Origin: Tunturibacter gelidoferens
Lineage (GTDB): Bacteria; Acidobacteriota; Terriglobia; Terriglobales; Acidobacteriaceae
Length of the DNA: 64,000 nucleotides
Direction of reading: 5' to 3'
NCBI RefSeq assembly: GCF_040358255.1
Contig: NZ_CP132938.1
Span: forward strand, 682,001 to 746,000
Each line of letters starts with the position of its first letter. The first letter of the stretch is position 1. The position numbers and the translations under genes were made by a program. Under the pieces are notes generated by a model that saw nothing but the letters and a program-made list of their open reading frames with translations, was not told the origin of the DNA and did no database searches. Shown piece by piece: positions 3,538 to 15,072 of this stretch.

Positions 3538-6087
3538 CTACCTCCCGGCAACCTCCAACTCCCCGCCCTCAGGCCTCTCCGGCAACAGAATCGTCAGCGA
3601 GTGCATCGCCTCATCGAATCTAGAGTTCGCAATCGCTTCGCCGCCGTATGTAATCTTCCCCGGCGCAACGTTCCAACCGAAGATGGTCACCTCTACCCGA
3701 TTCCACCAGGGCTGAAAACTCCCCTCTCGCGCCCCAACGTGAAGGCGCAAACCATCGCCAGTCGATTCGCAGCTATACTTCACGCGCAGAAAATCCTTCT
3801 CCTTATATGCGAAGCTGATTCCGTCATCCTGATACAGTGAGCCCGCGCATCCCTCGCCCGGATAGACCTTCAGCGTCAGCGGACCATCCGGCTTCTCCTG
3901 CGTACTCTCGACCAGCGGCGCAAACGGCAGGATCGACCCCGCCCGAACAAACACGGGCAACACATTCACCTCAGGCTTAATCTTCACCGACTGAAGCGCA
4001 CCCACTCCCAGCGCCGCACCCGTACTCACCACCACCGCCTCACGAGCACTAGCCGCAACTTTCGCTCCCGTCCAGTAGTCATACCAACCCACCGGAGGAA
4101 ACGTTACCGCATAGCTATCCGGCGCCTCAGGATAAGGCGCAGGCGCGATCAACAGATCCGGTCCAAGCATAAACTCATTGGCAGCATCAAGATCAAGCGG
4201 ATGCTTGTCTGCAGTCGCATCAGGAAACTCCAGAAACAGAGGCCGCATCATCGGAACACCTGTGCGGGAGTTCTCCTCCGCCAACGTATAAAGGTACGGC
4301 ATCAACCGATACCGATCCTCAATGTACTTCCTCCGAACCGCCTCTACCTCAGGACCACCCACCCACGGCTCCTGATCCGCCGTGAACTTTTCGGTGTGGT
4401 CGCGATAGATTGGATTGAACTCCCCCACCTCAATCCACTTCGTCAGCAGATCCTGCGTGGACGAACCCGCATAGCCTCCAATATCGTCACCCGCCATCGA
4501 AAACCCGCTCAGGCCAAGGTTCAGAAGCATCGGCGTACTCATGCGAAGGTGATTCCAGCTGCTCGAGTTATCTCCCGTCCAAGTCGACGCATACCGCTGA
4601 CCGCCCGCGTAAGTAGCCCGAGTCAAAACAAAAGGCCGCTGGTTCGGCTTCAACGCGAGCAGGCCTTCATAGGTCCCCCGCGAGTTCTCCATGCCATACA
4701 CGTTGTGAATCTCCGCATGACGCGCAGTCCTCGGCACAAAGCCCGGCTCATCGATCCGATGCACCACATCCAGCGGCATCGTCTTCGATGGGGTCTCGAA
4801 CACCGAAGGTTCGTTCATGTCGTTCCAAAACCCCGCCGCTCCATCCTCATAGAAGTCTTTATAGAGAGTTCCCCACCACACCCGCGACTCTTTCCTTGTG
4901 AAATCAGGAAACACCGATGGCCCCGGCCACACCTTGCCCACAAACACCGACCCATCCGGATTTTTCACAAAATGATCGCCCGCTAACCCCGTGCCGTAAG
5001 GCGCGTATCCCTGATTCGCTCGATCCGCAATATGCAGATCCGTAATCAACACCAGGTTGAAGTGCTTCTCCTTCAACTCCTGAATAAACTCCGGAAACTT
5101 CGGAAACGCCTGCTGATTCACCGTGAACGGCGCGTTCCGATCCTGAAAGTCGATGTCCAGATAGAGTGCATCACAAGGAATCCGATCAACGCGCATACGG
5201 TCTGCCACCTCGCGCGCCCGCGCCTCCGTCATGTAGGAGTAGCGCGACTGCTGAAAGCCCAGTGACCACCGCGGAGGCAGCGGCGTAAGACCAGTCAACC
5301 AGGCATAACCCTCCATCACCTGCTTCGGCTTCGGGCCATAGATAAAGTAGTAGTCAATCGGTCCGCCATCGGCGCCAAACGAGTAAGCCTCCGAGTCTTC
5401 CTTCCCAAAATCAAAGCTCGTCCGCCACGTGTTATCCAGAAACAACCCGTACGATCTCCCCGCATTGTCCGCGACAAAAAACGGAATCGCCTTATAAAGC
5501 GGATCGCTGCTCTCCTGAAAGCGATATTGATCTGTATTCCACATCTCGTAGGCACCACCTCTGCGATCAAGCGGCCCCGTCTTATCTCCCAGGCCAAAGT
5601 AGTGCTCCTCTGCCGGCATCCTCTTGTAGACGCGGAAGTGATCGCCGTGAAACTCAACCGGTCGCGCATCCTGCAACAAAACTCCGCCGCTCCCATCGCT
5701 GATCGTGACGGCAAGCGTCGCGCGGTCCACAGAAACCTGCAGTGCCTTCGTACGAAAACCAGCCTTGCTCGCCTCCGCGCGATAGGCCGTGGCGACGGAG
5801 CTTGTTCGCGAGCCCGGAAGCACAGCCCACGACGCATCCTCCGGCATCTTCCCCGTCTTCGAGACTCGAATACGCAGAACATCCTCTCGCAGCGCGGTAA
5901 TCTGAACCCTCGCCTCGCCATCCCTCAGCTCTAAGCCATTCGGCAGCGCCGCAGCACTCGTCGCACGATTCAGCGAAATCAGATCGCCCTTTTCACCCGT
6001 TGCGCTCTGTGCCGACAGACCGGGAACACTCATCACGCAGCCCAAAACAAACAGGACAGCAACTCTTCCAAAACGCAATCCATTCAT
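3538..6087 (-). CDS. Glycoside hydrolase family 31 (alpha-glucosidase type)
   Basis: The protein has 849 residues with an N-terminal signal peptide ending near GLSAQ. Family GH31 enzymes release terminal alpha-glucose or alpha-xylose by a retaining mechanism. The nucleophile motif WNDMNE is present with Asp423, and the acid/base motif TWTGDN with Asp506, so the enzyme should be active. The order is N-terminal galactose-mutarotase-like domain, (beta/alpha)8 barrel with the motifs, and C-terminal beta domains including the DUF5110-like end. I chose the ATG at 6087 because GAAGGA precedes it by a good distance and it opens the signal peptide; a start 66 bp further up would add a non-signal tail. 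It probably acts in the periplasm on oligosaccharides. Substrate cannot be told from sequence. Confidence 0.92.
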   Translation of the reverse strand: MNGLRFGRVAVLFVLGCVMSVPGLSAQSATGEKGDLISLNRATSAAALPNGLELRDGEARVQITALREDVLRIRVSKTGKMPEDASWAVLPGSRTSSVATAYRAEASKAGFRTKALQVSVDRATLAVTISDGSGGVLLQDARPVEFHGDHFRVYKRMPAEEHYFGLGDKTGPLDRRGGAYEMWNTDQYRFQESSDPLYKAIPFFVADNAGRSYGLFLDNTWRTSFDFGKEDSEAYSFGADGGPIDYYFIYGPKPKQVMEGYAWLTGLTPLPPRWSLGFQQSRYSYMTEARAREVADRMRVDRIPCDALYLDIDFQDRNAPFTVNQQAFPKFPEFIQELKEKHFNLVLITDLHIADRANQGYAPYGTGLAGDHFVKNPDGSVFVGKVWPGPSVFPDFTRKESRVWWGTLYKDFYEDGAAGFWNDMNEPSVFETPSKTMPLDVVHRIDEPGFVPRTARHAEIHNVYGMENSRGTYEGLLALKPNQRPFVLTRATYAGGQRYASTWTGDNSSSWNHLRMSTPMLLNLGLSGFSMAGDDIGGYAGSSTQDLLTKWIEVGEFNPIYRDHTEKFTADQEPWVGGPEVEAVRRKYIEDRYRLMPYLYTLAEENSRTGVPMMRPLFLEFPDATADKHPLDLDAANEFMLGPDLLIAPAPYPEAPDSYAVTFPPVGWYDYWTGAKVAASAREAVVVSTGAALGVGALQSVKIKPEVNVLPVFVRAGSILPFAPLVESTQEKPDGPLTLKVYPGEGCAGSLYQDDGISFAYKEKDFLRVKYSCESTGDGLRLHVGAREGSFQPWWNRVEVTIFGWNVAPGKITYGGEAIANSRFDEAMHSLTILLPERPEGGELEVAGR

Positions 6088-6483
6088 ATTTCCTTCAACC
6101 TCATTCACACATAGAAAAGCGGGAGTCTGACTCCGAAGAAGCCTCCGAGTCACAAACCAACATTATGCACCTCCGCCCCCAAGTCTCCCCGCGCTCCCCT
6201 AAACTAAACTCCCAGATGGACTAAACAAGGCCCACCTCTGTCATTTCCGTGGCCTCCCTTTCGCTGGGCTGCCTCTGCATTAAGAGGGCCGCTGTCTTCT
6301 AGCGCCAACCGCCTGTTCAAAGATAGGATCTCTGACGGTGCCGCCCTAACTGCCGCCTGTCCGCTATGCCGACTATCCCTCCAAGTGACGAGAAGCGCGT
6401 TTGTGAGGACTCATCTCGCCTAGCTCGCGAAAAGACGAGAGCGCGCCTATTACAGTCATCGCGCTTTCACCACCTGTGCCGTT
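6088..6483. other. Intergenic region without a gene
   Basis: This 396-bp gap lies upstream of the GH31 gene and downstream of the TetR gene. I found no credible coding frame, RNA gene or strong terminator in it. It must hold the GH31 promoter, which I could not place. Confidence 0.5.
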
Positions 6484-7074
6484 TCATCTTGGGAAAGTGA
6501 AGAGCTCGACGAGCGCCCTCACGCGCTCTTTCTGACGGCTGCGCGGAAATCGCTTGGTTCTTGTTAGCTCGGCGATACCATGGAGGCTCGCCCAAAACAG
6601 TTCCGATATAACCTCTGACTTCGAGCTCTGCCCCGGAAACAACTCCAGGAGTTGGGAAAACGCGAAACGCAGCTCCGGAGGAGTAGCCGCGTCATCGAAT
6701 GGCACGCTCAGGCTGAGCGAAAACATCACTTCATACAGTGCGGGTGAAGACGCGGCGAACTCCAGATACGCGGCCGCGACCGATTCGACAGTACCTCCAC
6801 GCTTAACCCGTTTCCGTGCCTTCTCCAAAGCCAGGCCCATCTCCTGGAAACCCTCGATAGCAACCGCGGCGAGAATCCCTTCGCGGCTTCCAAAATGAGC
6901 GTACAAGACGGGTTGGCTGTATGAAATTTCGTCGGATAGCCGCCGAACGGTTACGTTGGACCACCCTTCAAGCTCCGCGATTCGTCGTGCGGCACTGATG
7001 ATCTGTGCCCGGCGGGCCTGCTTGTCACGCAGTTTTCGTTCCGCAATTCGGTTAGGTGTTAGCGTCGACGCCAT
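6484..7074 (-). CDS. TetR/AcrR family transcriptional regulator
   Basis: The protein has 196 residues. The N-terminal helix-turn-helix is typical: IISAARRIAELEGWSNVTVRRLSDEISYSQPVLYAHFGSR split across residues about 24-64, including the YxHFxSRE recognition-helix end. The C-terminal all-helical domain binds a ligand in this family; here it resembles the WHG/TetR_C types but I cannot assign a ligand. The gene is divergent from the DUF4267-NIPSNAP-DUF1772 operon with 107 bp between the start codons. Two TAGC-N3-GCTA palindromes in that gap are likely operators, one close to each start, so it probably represses both itself and the operon. Confidence 0.9.
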   Translation of the reverse strand: MASTLTPNRIAERKLRDKQARRAQIISAARRIAELEGWSNVTVRRLSDEISYSQPVLYAHFGSREGILAAVAIEGFQEMGLALEKARKRVKRGGTVESVAAAYLEFAASSPALYEVMFSLSLSVPFDDAATPPELRFAFSQLLELFPGQSSKSEVISELFWASLHGIAELTRTKRFPRSRQKERVRALVELFTFPR

Positions 7075-7980: not shown

Positions 7981-8436
7981 ATGGAAGTCCTAAATGTCGT
8001 TGCAATTATCGTCGCTGGATTGATGGTTGGATCTGAACTGGCCATCGCCGCGTTTGTTCATCCAACGCTCGATAAACTTCCGGATGATGTTCATCTGCCA
8101 GCCGCAAGCGCCCTCGCTCGTGTGCAGGGGAGGTTCATGCCGTTTTGGTACATTCTTGTATTTTTGCTTACTTTAGCCGAGCTTGTAATCCAATGGCACC
8201 AATCTGGTCGCTTACCGATCTGGATCACTACATCGGCCGTTTTGTGGATTTTGGCGATTTTGTATACGGTCACCGCCCTCGTGCCGATCAACAACCGTAT
8301 CGCATCGTGGGAAAAGTCCACTCCGCCTGCCGATTGGAAGACTTACCGGAGCAGATGGGATCTGCTTCACCGCTGGCGTGTTGTTCTCCTCACGATAGCT
8401 TTCGCGTTTCTAATCGTGGGATTCGTTTGCAAGTAG
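7981..8436 (+). CDS. DUF1772 (anthrone-oxygenase-like) membrane protein
   Basis: The protein has 151 residues and four predicted transmembrane helices. It carries the DUF1772 hallmarks: the NxxxA/GSELAIAAFVHP start, VQGRFMPFWY, ALVPINNRIASW and WxxLHRWR. Some eukaryotic relatives are anthrone oxygenases; bacterial members are mostly uncharacterised. Two adjacent in-frame ATGs lie at 7978 and 7981; GGAGGA at 7969-7974 has the better spacing to 7981. It is the last gene of the operon with DUF4267 and NIPSNAP. Confidence 0.83.
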   Translation: MEVLNVVAIIVAGLMVGSELAIAAFVHPTLDKLPDDVHLPAASALARVQGRFMPFWYILVFLLTLAELVIQWHQSGRLPIWITTSAVLWILAILYTVTALVPINNRIASWEKSTPPADWKTYRSRWDLLHRWRVVLLTIAFAFLIVGFVCK

Positions 8437-8494
8437 TCATCTTTGGCCTCTTCCCCAAGGCAGCTATCGCCGGAGATCGGGAGTCGTGGCAGTC

Positions 8495-8530
8495 TGCGCC
8501 ATTCCGGCTCTTTCGCGTGGCCTATTACTT
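8495..8530 (+). repeat. Partial copy of a repeated intergenic box
   Basis: GCGCCATTCCGGCTCTTTCGCGTGGC is nearly the same as 10418-10443, and GTGGCCTATTACTT matches the GTGGCGYATTAGTT box seen at 10438 and 61995 at 12 of 14 positions. Unlike those two, no -10-like hexamer or terminator follows. ATTACTT/AAGTAAT right after it (8524-8542) forms a small hairpin next to the stop of the minus-strand gene. Confidence 0.5.
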
Positions 8531-8541
8531 ACCGCAAGTAA

Positions 8542-8958
8542 TCACCGAGCTTTGCGAGGCTTCGGCTCGCTTCGAGCCGCTTTGCCGCCGGCACCGGGGG
8601 CGGGCATTACCTGGCCATGTGCTACCTGACCCAACGCTACGGGAGGCTTTTGAGCGATTTGGCTCCGGGTAAGTGCGACGCGAATCGCTATGCCGTTGTT
8701 CTTGCCGGTATCGATGAGATAGTCGGCGGTGACGGGCAGATTGTTCACGAAGGCGTCGCGCAGGAGGCCGAACATTGCCTGGCGGGCCGGAAGGTTGTCG
8801 TCGTTTCGGAGTTGAAAGCCATAGGCACCATCGCCGATTGCGTTGAGGATGAATACGGCCTCAACATCCAGGGCATCGTTGGGAGGACCGTAGCCGGTGC
8901 CGAGGTCGTGGGCGCGGAGAAAAACGATTTTTCCTGTCTTTTCGAGCAAGTTGGACAT
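8542..8958 (-). CDS. Stand-alone copy of the metalloprotease C-terminal domain
   Basis: The protein has 138 residues. Residues about 3-100 match the last 95 residues of the preceding metalloprotease: FLRAHDLGTGYG against FLRAHELGSGYG, YGFQLRNDDNLPARQAMFG against FGFQLRADPNGPTRREMFD, then LRDAFVNNLPVTADY against LRSAFIAGRPIRLDY. It adds a Pro/Ala/Arg-rich tail of about 40 residues. There is no signal peptide. AGGAG lies 9 bp before the ATG at 8958, and only 10 bp separate it from the protease gene, so the two form an operon. I do not know a function for this domain. A binding partner, inhibitor or shared carbohydrate/surface module are possibilities. Confidence 0.75.
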   Translation of the reverse strand: MSNLLEKTGKIVFLRAHDLGTGYGPPNDALDVEAVFILNAIGDGAYGFQLRNDDNLPARQAMFGLLRDAFVNNLPVTADYLIDTGKNNGIAIRVALTRSQIAQKPPVALGQVAHGQVMPAPGAGGKAARSEPKPRKAR

Positions 8959-8968
8959 GGGTAGTCTC

Positions 8969-10042
8969 CTATGGGTTCGCGACGCGAATGATTTCACCTG
9001 CGCGGGGGCCGATGGTAACGTAATCGAGCCGGATTGGCCGCCCGGCGATGAAGGCGGATCGAAGCATGTCGAACATCTCTCTGCGCGTGGGTCCGTTCGG
9101 GTCGGCACGCAGTTGAAAGCCGAACGCACGCAGCGGTTCCTCAGCGAGCTGCACGACCACCTCACAGTCGAGAAAATTTGGCGATTTGCCGTATCCGCTG
9201 CCGAGTTCGTGAGCCCGCAGGAACGAGATCTGGCCCACCGTCTCGATCAGACTCCCGATCGGATCGACCCTGCCGTACCCGATTACATCCATAAGCTGCA
9301 AGTCGACAGCCGAGACGGGATTGACCACACCTGAGTCGGAAAACTGATTGAACGAGTCGTTGGTGCCTCCCGCCCAATCCCGGGTATCTAAATGATTTGC
9401 GGCAGAATCATTAAACTCCTTCAGCAGGGTGACCCCGTTGTCGATCGAGAAGAAGTTCCCGGCACCACCGCCGAGTGACTTCATTCCGGCACCAGTGTAG
9501 GAAAAACAGTCGATCAGACTGAACGAATTGTTTCCGCCGGAGAGGCCGGTGCGGCCCATCACTTCGGAGATCTCATGTGCAGCAACACCCTGAAAATCAA
9601 ATGTTCCCGGGGCGATTGGACCGGAGAACGTGAAAGAGTTTCCCACTCCGAAGGTCGTGCCTCCATCGTCAGTCATATCATCGGGAATATGGCCAAGCGC
9701 TTTGGCTTGCGCTCGCATCAGCTGCCAGGTTCCGGCGCCATTGGTGGGATCGGTTGCGGTCATCGAGCCGCCAGGGCCGATCGCGATGGCATCGTTTTGC
9801 GTCGATGCGTATGCAACGACCTGATCGTAAAGATCGGCATACGAGATAGACACGGTCGCCGGAAAGCTCTCTCCGAAAACTGTCGCCTTTGTTACCGCGT
9901 CAACCGTGATATTGACGTGAATGTCGTCAGAGAATGCGTCGGTGAAGACCTTGGCCGCCGCCGTCCATGCTGCCTTGGCCGCCGTTGCGTTGACTCCGAA
10001 ATTCGTGTCGAACCCGGACGTGAATGTGGGAGTGATAATCAA
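8969..10042 (-). CDS. NF038122-type metalloprotease
   Basis: The protein has 357 residues. The zinc-site motif HEISEVMGR (His156) is typical of a zincin family described as NF038122, in which the usual HExxH is replaced by HExxE followed by Gly. The N-terminus (MIITPTFTSGFDTN) is not a classical signal peptide, as is usual for this family, so export, if any, must use another route. A domain boundary falls near residue 262; the last 95 residues are a separate module that recurs as a stand-alone protein encoded just downstream. The catalytic domain probably cleaves proteins, but no substrate can be inferred. Confidence 0.78.
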   Translation of the reverse strand: MIITPTFTSGFDTNFGVNATAAKAAWTAAAKVFTDAFSDDIHVNITVDAVTKATVFGESFPATVSISYADLYDQVVAYASTQNDAIAIGPGGSMTATDPTNGAGTWQLMRAQAKALGHIPDDMTDDGGTTFGVGNSFTFSGPIAPGTFDFQGVAAHEISEVMGRTGLSGGNNSFSLIDCFSYTGAGMKSLGGGAGNFFSIDNGVTLLKEFNDSAANHLDTRDWAGGTNDSFNQFSDSGVVNPVSAVDLQLMDVIGYGRVDPIGSLIETVGQISFLRAHELGSGYGKSPNFLDCEVVVQLAEEPLRAFGFQLRADPNGPTRREMFDMLRSAFIAGRPIRLDYVTIGPRAGEIIRVANP

Positions 10043-10437
10043 TTCGACCTCCCCTGAAGTTCAGACTGCTTGCCCTAAAGTTAAGGACCGTCAAGTAGGA
10101 CCCGAATGGCTAGAACCCCGAATGGCTGGAACCCAATGGCCTATCGCGTCATTCGTCACCTCCCCAAAGGATGAACGATAGACGGATACGCACAGTAGGT
10201 GAACTGTGCACAATTGCCGAACGCTGAAAAGATAGCACGAAAAGTCGGCTTGTGTGTTTACCGATCCGCTCCATTTTGTGTGGAGGTACAACCGGTTTAC
10301 CGGAGAAGTGCCGTCGATTCAATTGCGGGGGTTCCGTAGCAATGGAAGAAGCCGTCCACAGCGCAAGGGGCTTTAGCCCCGGAAAATTCTGTCAAGCCCC
10401 AAAATCACAAAAAGCCGCGCCATCCCTGCTCTTTCGC

Positions 10438-10520
10438 GTGGCGTATTAGTTACTCTCAAACCGCTACAATAGAACTATGCATAAAGAGAGCCCCGGCGAA
10501 TACCGGGGCTCCTTGCTTTT
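10438..10520 (+). ncRNA. Putative very short RNA gene, cassette 1
   Basis: The box GTGGCGTATTAGTT (10438-10451) is followed 13 bp later by TACAAT (10465-10470), a good -10 hexamer, and then by an intrinsic terminator ending in a T-rich run at 10520. An RNA started here would be about 40-45 nt and mostly terminator. A cassette with the same box, a -10-like hexamer at exactly the same offset (27 bp from box start) and a different terminator lies at 61995-62080. Expression is inferred; the -35 spacing is not that of a normal housekeeping promoter. Confidence 0.4.
10488..10520 (+). terminator. Intrinsic terminator
   Basis: GAGCCCCGG (10488-10496) pairs with CCGGGGCTC (10503-10511) over a six-base loop, and CTTGCTTTT follows. 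This is a strong rho-independent terminator for a plus-strand transcript. Confidence 0.8.
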
Positions 10521-10652
10521 AATCCCATAACCCTTTTGTTTGAACGAATCTGCACGCAACCCGTTTCTTATGAATATTTTGCCGGCCAAGACTATGCGCA
10601 AATCCATGATAATACTCAGCTTACGCGCAGGTAATAGGAGGGGGGTACCCAT

Positions 10653-11228
10653 CTATCTTTGCGCAGGAGCCGCCTGATCGAGATCCAGATTCAGCATCAA
10701 CACATTCACCCGCGACTCTCCGAGAAACCCAAGCTGACGCCCCTCGGTATGTTGTGCCACCAGACGTCGCACAGCATCTTCGCTCAAACGTCGCTCCCGC
10801 GCAACGCGAGCCACCTGAAACTCCGCAGCCGCTGGCGTAATGTGAGGATCCAGTCCCGATCCCGAAGCCGTGACCAGATCAATCGGCACGTTCGCTCCAG
10901 GATGATCGACCTGCAACGCCGCCACATCCCCCGCTACCCGGTCGATCAGCTTCTTGTTCGTCGGACCAAGATTCGACCCACTCGAGTTCGCAGCATCGTA
11001 TCCAATGCCCGCCTCCGAAGGCCGCGAATGAAAGTACTGCGGAGCCGTAAACGACTGACCGATAAGACGCGAGCCAACGAGCTGCCCACCCGCATAAAGA
11101 AGCTGCCCGTTAGCCTTGTCATGAAACAGCACCTGCGCCAGTCCGGTCACAACAAACGGATAGACCAAGCCGAACAAAACAGTCGTAACAACGGTATAAA
11201 GCACAGCGGTGATCAGATTGCGACGCAT
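10653..11228 (-). CDS. kdpC: Potassium-transporting ATPase subunit KdpC
   Basis: The protein has 191 residues, the usual size for KdpC. It has one N-terminal membrane helix (TAVLYTVVTTVLFGLVYPFVVTGLAQVLF) and then a periplasmic domain with the family motifs QYFHSRPS, SNLGPTNKKL and SGLDPHITPAAA. KdpC stabilises the KdpFABC complex and supports high-affinity potassium uptake. It is the last gene of kdpF-kdpA-kdpB-kdpC, 8 bp after kdpB. The order matches the classical operon but no kdpD or kdpE follows it. Confidence 0.96.
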   Translation of the reverse strand: MRRNLITAVLYTVVTTVLFGLVYPFVVTGLAQVLFHDKANGQLLYAGGQLVGSRLIGQSFTAPQYFHSRPSEAGIGYDAANSSGSNLGPTNKKLIDRVAGDVAALQVDHPGANVPIDLVTASGSGLDPHITPAAAEFQVARVARERRLSEDAVRRLVAQHTEGRQLGFLGESRVNVLMLNLDLDQAAPAQR

Positions 11229-11236
11229 AAAATTCC

Positions 11237-13276
11237 TTAGGCCAGATGAATGGCAGTGATGATGATGTCGATGAGCTTGATACCAAGAAAAGGAGCAACA
11301 AGTCCGCCGAATCCGTAGATAAACAGATTGCGCTGCAACAACGCCTCCGCCGACATCGCCTTATAACCAACGCCCCTCAGCGCCAGCGGAATCAGCCCAA
11401 CAATGATCAACGCGTTGAAGATCACCGCCGAGAGAATCGCCGACTGCGGTGTCTTCAGATGCATGATATTCAACGCACTCAACACCGGAAACGTAGCAGC
11501 GAACATCGCCGGAATAATCGCAAAGTACTTCGCAACATCATTTGCGATCGAGAACGTCGTCAGCGCACCACGAGTCATCAGCAACTGCTTTCCGATCTCC
11601 ACAATCTCGATCAGCTTCGTCGGGTTCGAGTCGAGGTCGACCATATTCCCCGCCTCCTTCGCCGCCTGCGTGCCTGTGTTCATCGCAACGCCCACATCAG
11701 CCTGCGCCAGCGCAGGAGCGTCATTGGTTCCATCGCCCGTCATCGCAACCAGCTTGCCCTCAGCCTGCTCGCGGCGAATCAGGTCCATCTTGTCCTTGGG
11801 CTTCGCCTCCGCGAGAAAGTCGTCGACACCGGCCTCACGCGCAATCGCCGCCGCAGTCAGCGGATTATCTCCGGTAATCATGATCGTCCGAATCCCCATC
11901 GACCGAAGCTGCGCGAACCGCTCCTTCATTCCACCCTTCACAATGTCCTTCAGATGGATCACGCCCAGTGCCTGCCGATTCTCCGCCACCACCAGCGGCG
12001 TACCCCCACTACGGGCAACCGTCTCAACCGCTGCGCGCACCTCATCCGGTAAACTTCCGCCATTCTCCTTCAAAAATGCGGCAATCGCGTCGGTCGAACC
12101 CTTCCGAATAATCCGCCCATCAAGGTTAACGCCCGACATTCTCGTTACCGCGCTGAACGGCACAAACTCCGCCTGCAACTCGCTCAACTCGCGCCCGCGA
12201 AGACCGTACAACTCCTTGGCCAACACCACAATGCTGCGCCCCTCCGGCGTCTCATCCGGAAGCGACGACAACTGCGCCGCATCCGCAAGCTGATCCTTGC
12301 TCACTCCAGGCGCAGGAATAAACTCCGCAGCCTGACGGTTGCCCAGCGTAATTGTTCCCGTCTTATCCAGCAGAAGCGTATTCACATCACCCGCCGCTTC
12401 AACCGCGCGCCCCGACATCGCCAGCACATTATGCTGCACCAGCCGATCCATCCCAGCAATCCCAATCGCCGAAAGCAGCCCGCCAATCGTCGTCGGAATC
12501 AGACACACCAGCAACGAGATCAGCACAAACACCGTCTGCGGCGCAGTCGAATAGATCGCGATCGGCTGCAACGTCACCACAGCTAGCAAGAAGATGATCG
12601 TCAAGCCCGCAAGGAGGATGTTCAGAGCGATCTCATTCGGAGTCTTCTGTCGCTCCGCGCCTTCAACCAGCGCAATCATGCGATCCAGAAATGTCTCACC
12701 GGGGTTAGATGTAATCTTCACCTTGATCTGGTCCGATAAACACCGCGTTCCACCAGTAACCGCGGACCGATCTCCACCAGCTTCGCGAATCACTGGCGCA
12801 GACTCACCCGTGATCGCCGACTCATCCACCGAAGCCACGCCTTCGATTACTTCGCCATCGCCGGGGATCATATTACCAGCAATAACAATGACATGATCCC
12901 CCGCCCGCAGATCCGAGCTGGGAACCTCCTCCGTGCTCCCGTCTATGCGAAGCCGCACTGCAGTCGTCTCCGACTTCGCACGCCGCAGCGCGTCCGCCTG
13001 CGCCTTGCCGCGGCCTTCCGCCATCGCTTCCGCAAAGTTCGCGAATAGTACGGTGAACCAGAGCCACAACGTAATCTGCAGATCGAATTGAAACGACCCG
13101 CGATGCGAGAGACTATCGCGAAGCAGATAGATAGTGGTAATCACGCTGCCGATCTCAACAACGAACATCACCGGATTCTTCATCATCGTGCGCGGACTCA
13201 GCTTGACTAACGCGTCGACCAGCGCGCGGCGTACTATTTTGCTGTCCCATAAGGAGCGTTTGCGGGTATTTGCCAT
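11237..13276 (-). CDS. kdpB: Potassium-transporting P-type ATPase KdpB
   Basis: The protein has 679 residues, close to the E. coli subunit. It is the catalytic subunit of the KdpFABC pump and couples ATP hydrolysis to potassium import. The phosphorylation motif DKTGT is present with Asp304, as are the actuator motif TGES, the nucleotide-binding region KGxxxAI and the [12 protein letters not shown] hinge. Seven membrane segments are apparent. It lies between kdpA (20-bp gap) and kdpC (8-bp gap). Confidence 0.97.
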
Positions 13277-13296
13277 GGTTATCTGTTTTCTCTGGA

Positions 13297-15072
13297 CTAG
13301 AAGCTTTTGCCAGCGTGCATCATTAGGTGCTCAAGAATTGGACCGAGCGAGATAGCGGGAAAGAAAGTAAGCGCGCCAACGATAAGAACAACGCCCACCA
13401 AAAGCACCGTGAATAGCGGCGTATGAACAGGAAAAGTTCCCGGCGATGGAGGAACCAGCTTCTTCTTCGCCAGACTACCGGCGATAGCCAGCATCGGAAC
13501 GATCATCAGGAATCGGCCGATCAGCATCGCTGCCGCCAGCGATAAGTTGTACCAATGCGTATTCGCACTAAGGCCCGCGAAAGCGGATCCGTTATTTCCA
13601 GTCGCTGACGTGTAGGCGTAGAGAATCTCCGATAGACCATGAGGTCCCGTGTTCGCCAGCGACGAGAGGCCAAGTTGCGGCATCATCAGGGTCACCGCCG
13701 AAAATCCCAGAATCGACAAAGGAAAGATCAGCACATAAAGCATGGCCATCTTCACGTCATACGATTCGATCTTCTTGCCCAGATACTCAGGCGTCCGCCC
13801 AACCATCAAACCGGCTATAAAGACAGCCAGTACGACGAAGATCAACATCCCATAGAGCCCCGCTCCCACCCCACCGAAGATCACCTCGCCCAGCATGATG
13901 TTGACCATCGGGACCAAACCTCCGAGCGGCATAAACGAATCGTGCATGGCGTTCACCGCACCGCAGCTTGCATCCGTTGTCACTGTCGCAAACAATGCGG
14001 AGTTGGCGATGCCGAACCGTACTTCCTTGCCTTCCATATTGCCGCCGGCCTGCATCGTCGAAACATGCTGATCCACCGAGTGAAGAAGCGGATTTGTCTG
14101 AGCCTCCGCGTAGTACGCCACAAAAACACCAACAAAAAAGAGCGCAGACATCGCAGCAAAGACTGCCCAGCCATGCTTCGGCGCTCGCGTCATTCGACCC
14201 AGCGTGACTGTCAGCCCGGCGGGTATCAGGAAGATCGAGAACATCTGCATCAAATTAGAGAGAGGCGTTGGGTTCTCGAACGGGTGTGCGCTGTTTGTAT
14301 TAAAGAACCCTCCACCATTTGTCCCTAGCATCTTGATCGCTTCCTGAGAAGCAACCGGGCCCTGCGCAATGCTCTGCGTCGTCACAGTTTGTGTCGTCGT
14401 CTTACCGTCAGAGCCTGTGGCAGTTGTCGTCTGCGCCTGCACGAGCTTTGCCTGATCGTAGGGGCGAAAGTTCTGCACTACGCCTTGCGAGACCAACAAG
14501 AGCGCATAGATCAAACAACCTGGAAGTAGAACCCACAACGAGGCGCGCGTCGCATCAACCCAAAAATTTCCCAGGGTCTTCGACTCTCGCCGCGAAATAC
14601 CACGGATCAGCGCAACCGCCAAAGCCATTCCGACAGCCGCCGAGAAGAAGTTATGGTAAGCAAGGGTGAGCATCTGAGTTAAATAGCTCATCGTCGTCTC
14701 AGGCACATAGGACTGCCAGTTGGTATTCGTCGTAAAAGACGCCGCCGTGTTCAATGCAAGATCAGGAGTTACAGATGTGAGATGCTGAGGATTGAGGGGC
14801 AGCCACTGCTGCAGCCGCTCTACCGCATACGTTGCCAACATTGAGACCAGGCTGAAGAGCAACATGACAACCGCATATTCGCTCCAGGTCATCTCATGCG
14901 TTTCGTCGATGCCCGTCAGGCGATAGACGAGTCGCTCCAGCGGACGAAAGATAACATCTACCCAGGTCTGTTCGCGCTCGAAGACGCGAGCCATGTACAG
15001 ACCCAGTGGCTTTGCACATACCAATATCAATGCAAAAAAGACGAAAACCTGAAACCAGCCGTTCGCGGTCAT
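13297..15072 (-). CDS. kdpA: Potassium-transporting ATPase channel subunit KdpA
   Basis: The protein has 591 residues, slightly longer than the E. coli subunit of 557. KdpA is the potassium-selective channel-like subunit. It has about ten membrane segments and the selectivity-loop sequences [30 protein letters not shown] (partly), and GNNGSAFAG that line the filter in this family. GAGGAAG precedes the ATG at 15072. It follows kdpF by 15 bp and precedes kdpB by 20 bp. Confidence 0.97.

What the first reader, a model, noticed from the sequence alone, without database searches (positions are those of the whole stretch)
8542..10042. Metalloprotease operon with a stand-alone copy of its own C-terminal domain
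The last 95 residues of the protease and the whole core of the next protein are homologous (FLRAHxLGxGYG; FQLRxDxNxPxRxxMF; DYxxxxxxxGxxIRVA). A repeated accessory domain, once fused and once free, next to a peptidase suggests a competing inhibitor, a self-protection protein or a shared anchor. I do not know a named function for this domain.
Basis: partly seen in the sequence, partly recalled or inferred. Interest (0 to 1): 0.65.

Follow-up and report, generated by a model that had tools for sequence, protein, structure and literature searches.

The report
Protease-like gene with free OB-type domain
A soil bacterium carries a two-gene unit in which an unnamed small domain occurs once as the tail of a protease-like protein and once as a separate protein made right after it, a rare arrangement that may build a mixed protein assembly, although nobody has tested it.

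Summary
Confirmed: a 357-residue NF038122-family zincin (8969-10042, minus) ends in a 96-residue domain 46% identical to most of the next protein (8542-8958, 138 aa). The domain passes no Pfam, NCBIfam, PHROG or PADLOC model. The gene pair is kept under purifying selection in three species; fused copies group with fused, free with free, so the duplication is old. In a fourth species the free-type domain follows a PKD-like region, 75 bp upstream of an unrelated, sedolisin-like peptidase. Free-type copies thus lie beside a peptidase gene in 5 of 5 genomes found (two independent contexts).

Corrections: the motif is HExxE, a conserved subfamily feature, so protease activity is unproven. Two close relatives tested have leader-like N-termini and PEP-CTERM tails; this protein has neither and ends in the domain instead.

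Low-confidence models suggest an OB barrel, perhaps of the AB5-B/CipA type, folds that self-associate. Best guess: free and fused copies co-assemble into a hetero-oligomer that displays the zincin. Rivals: antitoxin-like inhibitor; independent binding domain. No interaction or activity was tested.

The parts
8969..10042 (-). Gene 1: leaderless NF038122-family zincin with C-terminal OB-like domain, 357 aa, TTG start
   Evidence: NCBIfam NF038122.1 146.7 bits against cut-off 80, residues 20-255; no hydrophobic leader and at most 6 in-frame codons before the start
9563..9577 (-). HEISE motif (residues 156-160), HExxE instead of HExxH
8972..9262 (-). Fused copy of the domain (residues 261-357 of gene 1)
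8542..8958 (-). Gene 2: free domain protein, 138 aa, ATG start, with a fast-changing tail from about residue 98 (basic in the window and KBS 89)
8668..8958 (-). Free copy of the domain (residues 1-97 of gene 2)
10048..10055 (-). Shine-Dalgarno-like AGGGGAGG before the TTG start of gene 1
   Evidence: read by eye
8966..8969 (-). Shine-Dalgarno-like GGAG of gene 2, overlapping the stop codon of gene 1 (8969-8971), which suggests coupled translation
   Evidence: read by eye
8496..8532 (+). 37-bp direct repeat, copy downstream of the operon
   Evidence: only these two copies in the window
10417..10453 (+). 37-bp direct repeat (89% identical), copy upstream of the operon
   Evidence: related, degenerate copies elsewhere in the genome

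Best explanation
A two-gene module of an HExxE zincin and an OB-type assembly domain. SHOWN: the zincin lacks the leader and the PEP-CTERM sorting tail that two tested close relatives carry, and bears the domain at its C-terminus; a second copy of the domain is encoded right after it; both copies are old, distinct and kept by selection. SUGGESTED by low-confidence models: the domain is a small OB barrel with a helix between strands 3 and 4, as in AB5-toxin B subunits and the crystal-forming protein CipA, folds that self-associate with helices bundled together. INFERRED: the free copies co-assemble with the fused copy into a hetero-oligomer in which one or a few zincin heads sit on a ring or lattice of domains. 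The free protein sets stoichiometry, valency and placement of the zincin, in the cytosol or after export by a route that needs no Sec leader. In G852 a free-type domain may be used to position a sedolisin-like peptidase.
For: Same two-gene order in E. lichenicola, KBS 89 and the Kiruna MAG, with two domain copies per genome at significant E-values, both in the operon. dN/dS zincin 0.15-0.16, fused domain 0.18-0.25, free domain 0.08-0.21, tail 0.33-0.69. 22 columns fixed but different between the fused and the free set, 33 invariant in all six; tree split 100/99. Models: strands and one helix in the order b-b-b-a-b-b in both copies; Foldseek's top PDB match is CipA (7xhs, E 0.016), then AB5 B subunits; VIA Z 10.1 for pertussis toxin chain F and 8.4 for CipA with the free copy, 6.8 (7.2 for another pertussis entry) and 6.3 with the fused copy. 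CipA forms tetramers through its helices and resembles a B-pentamer subunit (PMC9530169, passages read). Zincin pI 4.5-5.3, free protein pI 8.1-10.1, compatible with binding.
Against: Mean pLDDT is only 50.7 and 37.3, no Foldseek match reaches E 0.001, and no match of the fused copy reaches Z 8. Other OB or OB-like proteins match about as well: SilF at Z 8.6-8.7 ranks above CipA, single-strand DNA-binding types occur. So the AB5/CipA subtype is weak. No oligomerisation or contact was computed. In G852 the peptidase has no fused copy, so domain-to-domain assembly cannot tether it. The opposite pI rests at least partly on a basic tail that the Kiruna copy lacks.
Confidence: 0.4

Rival explanations
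1. Antitoxin-like self-protection: the free domain binds the zincin (through the fused copy or the active site) and keeps it off inside the cell, as the separately made C-terminal domain of Rpn nucleases blocks the full-length nuclease.
For: Rpn precedent for a free C-terminal domain that inhibits the full-length protein (PMC10327210, abstract and passages read). A leaderless, possibly proteolytic protein next to a small basic partner with probably coupled translation. Free-type copy beside a peptidase gene in 5 of 5 genomes.
Against: An inhibitor of both a zincin and a sedolisin-like peptidase would have to bind two unrelated folds. Rpn C-terminal domains are reported as highly variable, whereas here the free domain is about as constrained as the zincin. 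No PADLOC hit for either protein at E up to 1.
Confidence: 0.2
2. Independent ligand-binding or targeting domain: each copy binds the same ligand (a glycan, a nucleic acid or a surface component) on its own; fusion sends the zincin there, the free copy binds without it.
For: OB folds commonly bind sugars or nucleic acids (general knowledge). In G852 the domain sits behind a PKD-like region, as in binding proteins (PKD 12.2 bits, below its cut-off of 23.5). Many invariant charged residues in the six operon copies (E6, R15, H17, D31, E33, R51, D53, R59, R67, D79, R93).
Against: Does not explain why a free copy is encoded immediately after the fused one in all three operon-bearing species.
Confidence: 0.25
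3. Non-Sec export or anchoring tag: the domain replaces signal peptide and PEP-CTERM tail as the localisation signal.
For: Two close relatives have leader-like N-termini and a PEP-CTERM tail above cut-off; 17 of 21 zincin rows outside the operon end in a PEP-CTERM-like tail by eye. The operon proteins and both G852 proteins lack a hydrophobic leader.
Against: I recognised no secretion genes beside the operon in the ORF lists of the three loci (by eye, no family search of the neighbours); the free copy would be a tag without cargo.
Confidence: 0.12

Closest known systems
NF038122 family metalloprotease (metallo_LGF, NCBIfam)
   Same: Gene 1 scores 146.7 bits against a cut-off of 80 over residues 20-255; an Asp-x-aromatic region after the motif is shared.
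   Different: HExxE instead of HExxH; no leader; extra C-terminal domain; two close relatives checked carry a PEP-CTERM tail.
CipA crystalline inclusion protein (PDB 7xhs)
   Same: Best Foldseek match of the free domain in the PDB (E 0.016, prob 1.00); Z 8.4 over 85 residues.
   Different: 12-15% identity, no sequence-level match; the passages read mention no link to a peptidase.
AB5-toxin B subunits (OB fold)
   Same: Strand and helix order; many of the next-best fold matches; the idea of an enzyme part on a ring.
   Different: No sequence match; no leader; here one copy is fused to the enzyme-like part; nothing seen here suggests action on animals. A resemblance of fold only.
Rpn nucleases with intragenic C-terminal antitoxin (PMC10327210)
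   Same: The C-terminal domain exists both fused and as a separate small protein.
   Different: There an internal start within one gene; here a separate paralogous gene that diverged long ago; different enzyme and domain.

Membership tests
NF038122 metalloprotease | Profile score over NCBI's curated cut-off | tested here: met
   146.7 bits against 80; 147.9 in the genome search, the only match in the own genome
NF038122 metalloprotease | HExxH zinc motif as in the high-scoring members | tested here: not met
   HEISE. High-scoring members L023-L040 have HE[ILFV]GH. Of the 25 zincin rows, 23 have HExxE and two (L071, L072) HExxH
NF038122 metalloprotease | Peptidase activity | not testable with these tools
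   no assay; 'metalloprotease' is a family name only
PEP-CTERM surface protein | PEP-CTERM sorting tail (TIGR02595) | tested here: not met
   No hit in gene 1 at E up to 1; relatives L059 and L018 hit above cut-off
AB5 B-subunit fold / CipA-like OB fold | OB barrel with a helix between strands 3 and 4 | tested here: inconclusive
   Right order of elements in both models, but mean pLDDT 50.7 and 37.3
AB5 toxin | Detectable sequence similarity to solved B subunits | tested here: not met
   phmmer with P0002 (E up to 5) and a profile (A3, E up to 10) list no B-subunit chain
AB5 toxin | Secreted pentamer around a separate A subunit | not testable with these tools
   No hydrophobic leader on either protein; assembly not modelled
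Rpn-type intragenic antitoxin | Small protein translated from within the gene of the full-length protein | tested here: not met
   The free domain is a separate gene, 46% identical to the fused one; whether gene 1 also has an internal start was not tested
Known defence system | Match to a PADLOC model | tested here: not met
   0 families for both proteins at E up to 1

The most novel reading that the evidence does not exclude
A bacterial 'protease on its own ring': an AB5/CipA-like OB domain, duplicated into a fused and a free form, self-assembles in a leaderless setting and displays a zincin with a new HExxE metal site; the same domain family has been recruited independently as a partner of a sedolisin-like peptidase, which would define a new peptidase-partner domain.
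Probability: 0.15. Interest if true: 0.75.

Novelty: new variant of a known kind. Interest (0 to 1): 0.45.

Why it matters
It gives an unnamed domain linked, in the few genomes that have it, to two unrelated peptidase types, and a natural fused-plus-free pair in which assembly, inhibition and targeting can be told apart with simple co-expression tests. It also draws attention to a conserved HExxE zincin subfamily that the database names 'metalloprotease' although the usual second zinc histidine is replaced by glutamate in 23 of the 25 rows examined.

Tried and rejected
Plasmid, phage and virus searches with the domain or whole proteins gave nothing: plasmids, phages (gene 2 only), viral contigs. 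A phage or plasmid origin is not supported by them. No solved structure is related by sequence to either protein; the few listed rows (RNA-binding proteins, epoxide hydrolases, a chemotaxis protein, glucuronidases, at E 0.87-1.8) were read as chance. Foldseek against viral models gave mixed OB proteins, none at E 0.001 or better.

Weak rows dropped as chance: domain hits in G169 at E 0.0096, over 44 positions of an unlike protein, in G443 at E 0.009, and three in the own genome at E 0.035-0.145; PHROG 37842 on residues 63-98 of gene 1 at E 0.22; Pfam Tad5 (Type I Thoeris inhibitor) on residues 136-165 of the G852 protein, which lie in its domain copy, at E 0.11 and 13.1 bits against a cut-off of 27.

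Recent horizontal transfer of the operon: without the tail of gene 2 its dS between window and KBS 89 (0.34-0.47) is like that of rpoB (0.35), so descent with loss in many congeners fits for that pair. Against Kiruna, 0.63-0.91 versus 1.00 does not decide. DNA similarity ends at the operon borders in both. The 37-bp repeat around the operon may hint at insertion, but related cores occur elsewhere.

The HEXXE motif given for M35 proteases in PMC7215534 (passages) was not used as support: the usual M35 motif, as I recall it, is HEXXH. The promoter scan found no sigma-70-like site in 8000-11000 and terminator-like sites at about the shuffled rate, so it says nothing.

A model of the complex could not be made: two structure jobs only, and the two genes are not in one frame. 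Models from six sequences were poor; most of the zincin core of gene 1 had block pLDDT of about 20-30 and says nothing. Loci L084-L089 were fetched but not analysed. No held paper contains NF038122, nor PEP-CTERM, metalloprotease and Acidobacteri together; the listings were looked at, and only PMC9530169, PMC7215534 and PMC10327210 were opened, for passages.

Full report
What is there. On the minus strand, two genes follow each other with 10 bases between stop and start. Gene 1 (8969-10042, TTG) encodes 357 residues; residues 20-255 match NCBIfam NF038122 with 146.7 bits against a cut-off of 80. Gene 2 (8542-8958, ATG) encodes 138 residues. Residues 262-356 of gene 1 match residues 1-95 of gene 2 (44/95 identical, E 3e-22; score 192 against at most 52 in 2000 shuffles). 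Gene 2 and the domain part of gene 1 match no Pfam, NCBIfam, PHROG or PADLOC model at E up to 1 (a PHROG row at E 0.22 lies in the zincin part). The copy in G852 overlaps a Pfam row far below its cut-off (Tad5, E 0.11).

How widespread it is. In 396 Acidobacteriota genomes the gene 2 protein finds 2 genomes at E up to 0.001, the window's own and another of the same species; a profile of six copies (A3) finds the same two plus one weak chance hit at E up to 0.01. A pattern scan of 84,980 species genomes, which reaches close relatives only, finds 3 loci: E. lichenicola M8UP30, Acidobacteriaceae bacterium KBS 89 and an uncultured Kiruna MAG. In a class-wide sample a profile of the whole gene 1 protein (A4) matches 18 of 399 genomes at E up to 1e-5, and 4 of them have the operon: own, same species, one of the same genus whose match coordinates equal those of KBS 89, and one in family f2 whose coordinates equal those of the Kiruna MAG. 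A sample of 200 genomes of family f2 has the domain in 2, the Kiruna MAG and a new one, G852; the genus of G852 (1 of 5) and that of the Kiruna MAG (1 of 19) add none. Plasmids, phages and viral contigs gave none. So the domain is rare in what could be searched: five genomes, four species. Of 36 other same-genus genomes, some of them incomplete, none has a NF038122 match at E up to 1e-5; KBS 89 was not among them. Other phyla were reached only through.

Conservation. In the three operon-bearing species the order is the same and each genome has two copies of the domain at significant E-values, both in the operon. DNA similarity to KBS 89 (85%) and Kiruna (79%) starts and ends near the operon borders. 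dN/dS is 0.15-0.16 for the zincin part, 0.18-0.25 for the fused domain, 0.08-0.21 for the free domain and 0.33-0.69 in the tail. Fused copies are 77-81% identical to each other, free copies 84-89%, fused to free 41-46%; 22 columns are fixed but different between the two sets and 33 are invariant in all six. The tree, seven rows, separates the fused set from free plus G852 with 100/99 support. Both copies are therefore old, different and maintained. With rpoB as yardstick (dS 0.35 to KBS 89, 1.00 to Kiruna) descent with loss is as good as transfer for KBS 89.

A second context. In G852 the domain forms the end of a 226-residue protein whose first part resembles PKD (below cut-off). It shares 59-62% identity with the free copies and 41-44% with the fused ones. 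The next gene, 75 bp downstream on the same strand, encodes a peptidase with a pro-kumamolisin activation domain (55 bits against 23.5) and a subtilase-like core (32.3 against 21.8), which I read as a sedolisin. It shows no copy of the domain. So in all five genomes a free-type copy lies beside a peptidase gene, and the peptidase is of two unrelated kinds. The four operon genomes share one origin, so the number of independent cases is two, and the second could be chance.

The enzyme-like part. NF038122 is itself not rare in the phylum: 39 of 396 genomes match at E up to 1e-8, 22 over the cut-off. High-scoring members have HE[ILFV]GH (L023-L040). The window protein has HEISEVMGR. Of the 25 zincin rows found with the whole-protein profile in the class, 23 have HExxE and two HExxH (row L082 re-read). 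The glutamate is thus a conserved subfamily feature, not decay. An Asp in D-[LACNY]-[FY]-x-[YF] follows in the 24 distinct frames printed; whether it binds metal is unknown. Outside the operon 17 of 21 such rows end by eye in a PEP-CTERM-like tail; in L069, L072, L078 and L079 I saw none, and at least some of these frames may be cut. Two (L059, L018) were tested and pass the PEP-CTERM cut-off. These two also have hydrophobic N-termini (maximal 15-residue hydropathy 2.04 and 1.79), whereas the three operon proteins reach 0.75-1.06, and the frame leaves room for at most six more codons in the window genome and KBS 89, 25 in Kiruna. The operon form thus lacks export and sorting signals and carries the domain at its end.

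Fold of the domain. AlphaFold2 on six sequences gave weak models (mean pLDDT 50.7 for gene 2, 37.3 for gene 1), but both copies show the order b-b-b-a-b-b. Foldseek's best PDB match for the free copy is CipA (E 0.016), followed by many AB5 B subunits; none reaches E 0.001. VIA gives Z 10.1 for pertussis toxin chain F, 8.6-8.7 for SilF and 8.4 for CipA; for the fused copy the best are 7.2 (pertussis toxin) and 6.3 (CipA), none at 8. The tool states that models without a clear match typically reach 7-8, and general OB proteins match too. An OB-type barrel is likely; the AB5/CipA subtype is a lead. In CipA, helices form a four-helix bundle in a tetramer, and the authors note similarity to a B subunit (PMC9530169, passages).

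How it may work. I favour co-assembly of fused and free copies, with the free protein fixing how many zincin heads are displayed and where. The precedent of Rpn proteins (PMC10327210, abstract and passages), where a separately made C-terminal domain blocks the full-length protein, makes an inhibitor role a real rival; a simple ligand-binding role is the other. G852, where no fused copy was found beside the free-type one, speaks against models that need contact between two copies of the domain, mine included. No step of mechanism was tested.

Verdict. A real, rare, conserved two-gene arrangement with an unnamed domain: a new variant of a known kind, moderately interesting, with cheap decisive tests.

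Noticed in passing
L093:4562-6874 (G852): Free-type domain behind a PKD-like region, 75 bp upstream of a sedolisin-like peptidase gene without a hydrophobic leader, on the same strand.
   Followed up: partly
L055-L083, L019: A conserved HExxE subfamily of NF038122 zincins, mostly with PEP-CTERM-like tails, in families f2 and f91 and in one f89 genome (L019); one genome (G682) has five matches.
   Followed up: partly
window 8496-8532 and 10417-10453: A 37-bp direct repeat (89%) brackets the operon; its core pattern has only these two matches in the window. Related cores with 2 and 3 substitutions occur in 2 of 20 sampled 20-kb stretches (L104, L106), perhaps a third in L107 with 4, so it may belong to a dispersed element.
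   Followed up: partly
L073 (G688): The Kiruna MAG also has a separate HExxE zincin with a leader-like N-terminus and PEP-CTERM-like tail, without the domain (by eye).
   Followed up: no
window 10653-15072: A kdpA, kdpB and kdpC-like gene run on the minus strand lies upstream of the operon, and a TetR-like gene (6484-7074) and a glycoside-hydrolase-like gene (3538-6153) lie downstream (named by eye).
   Followed up: no
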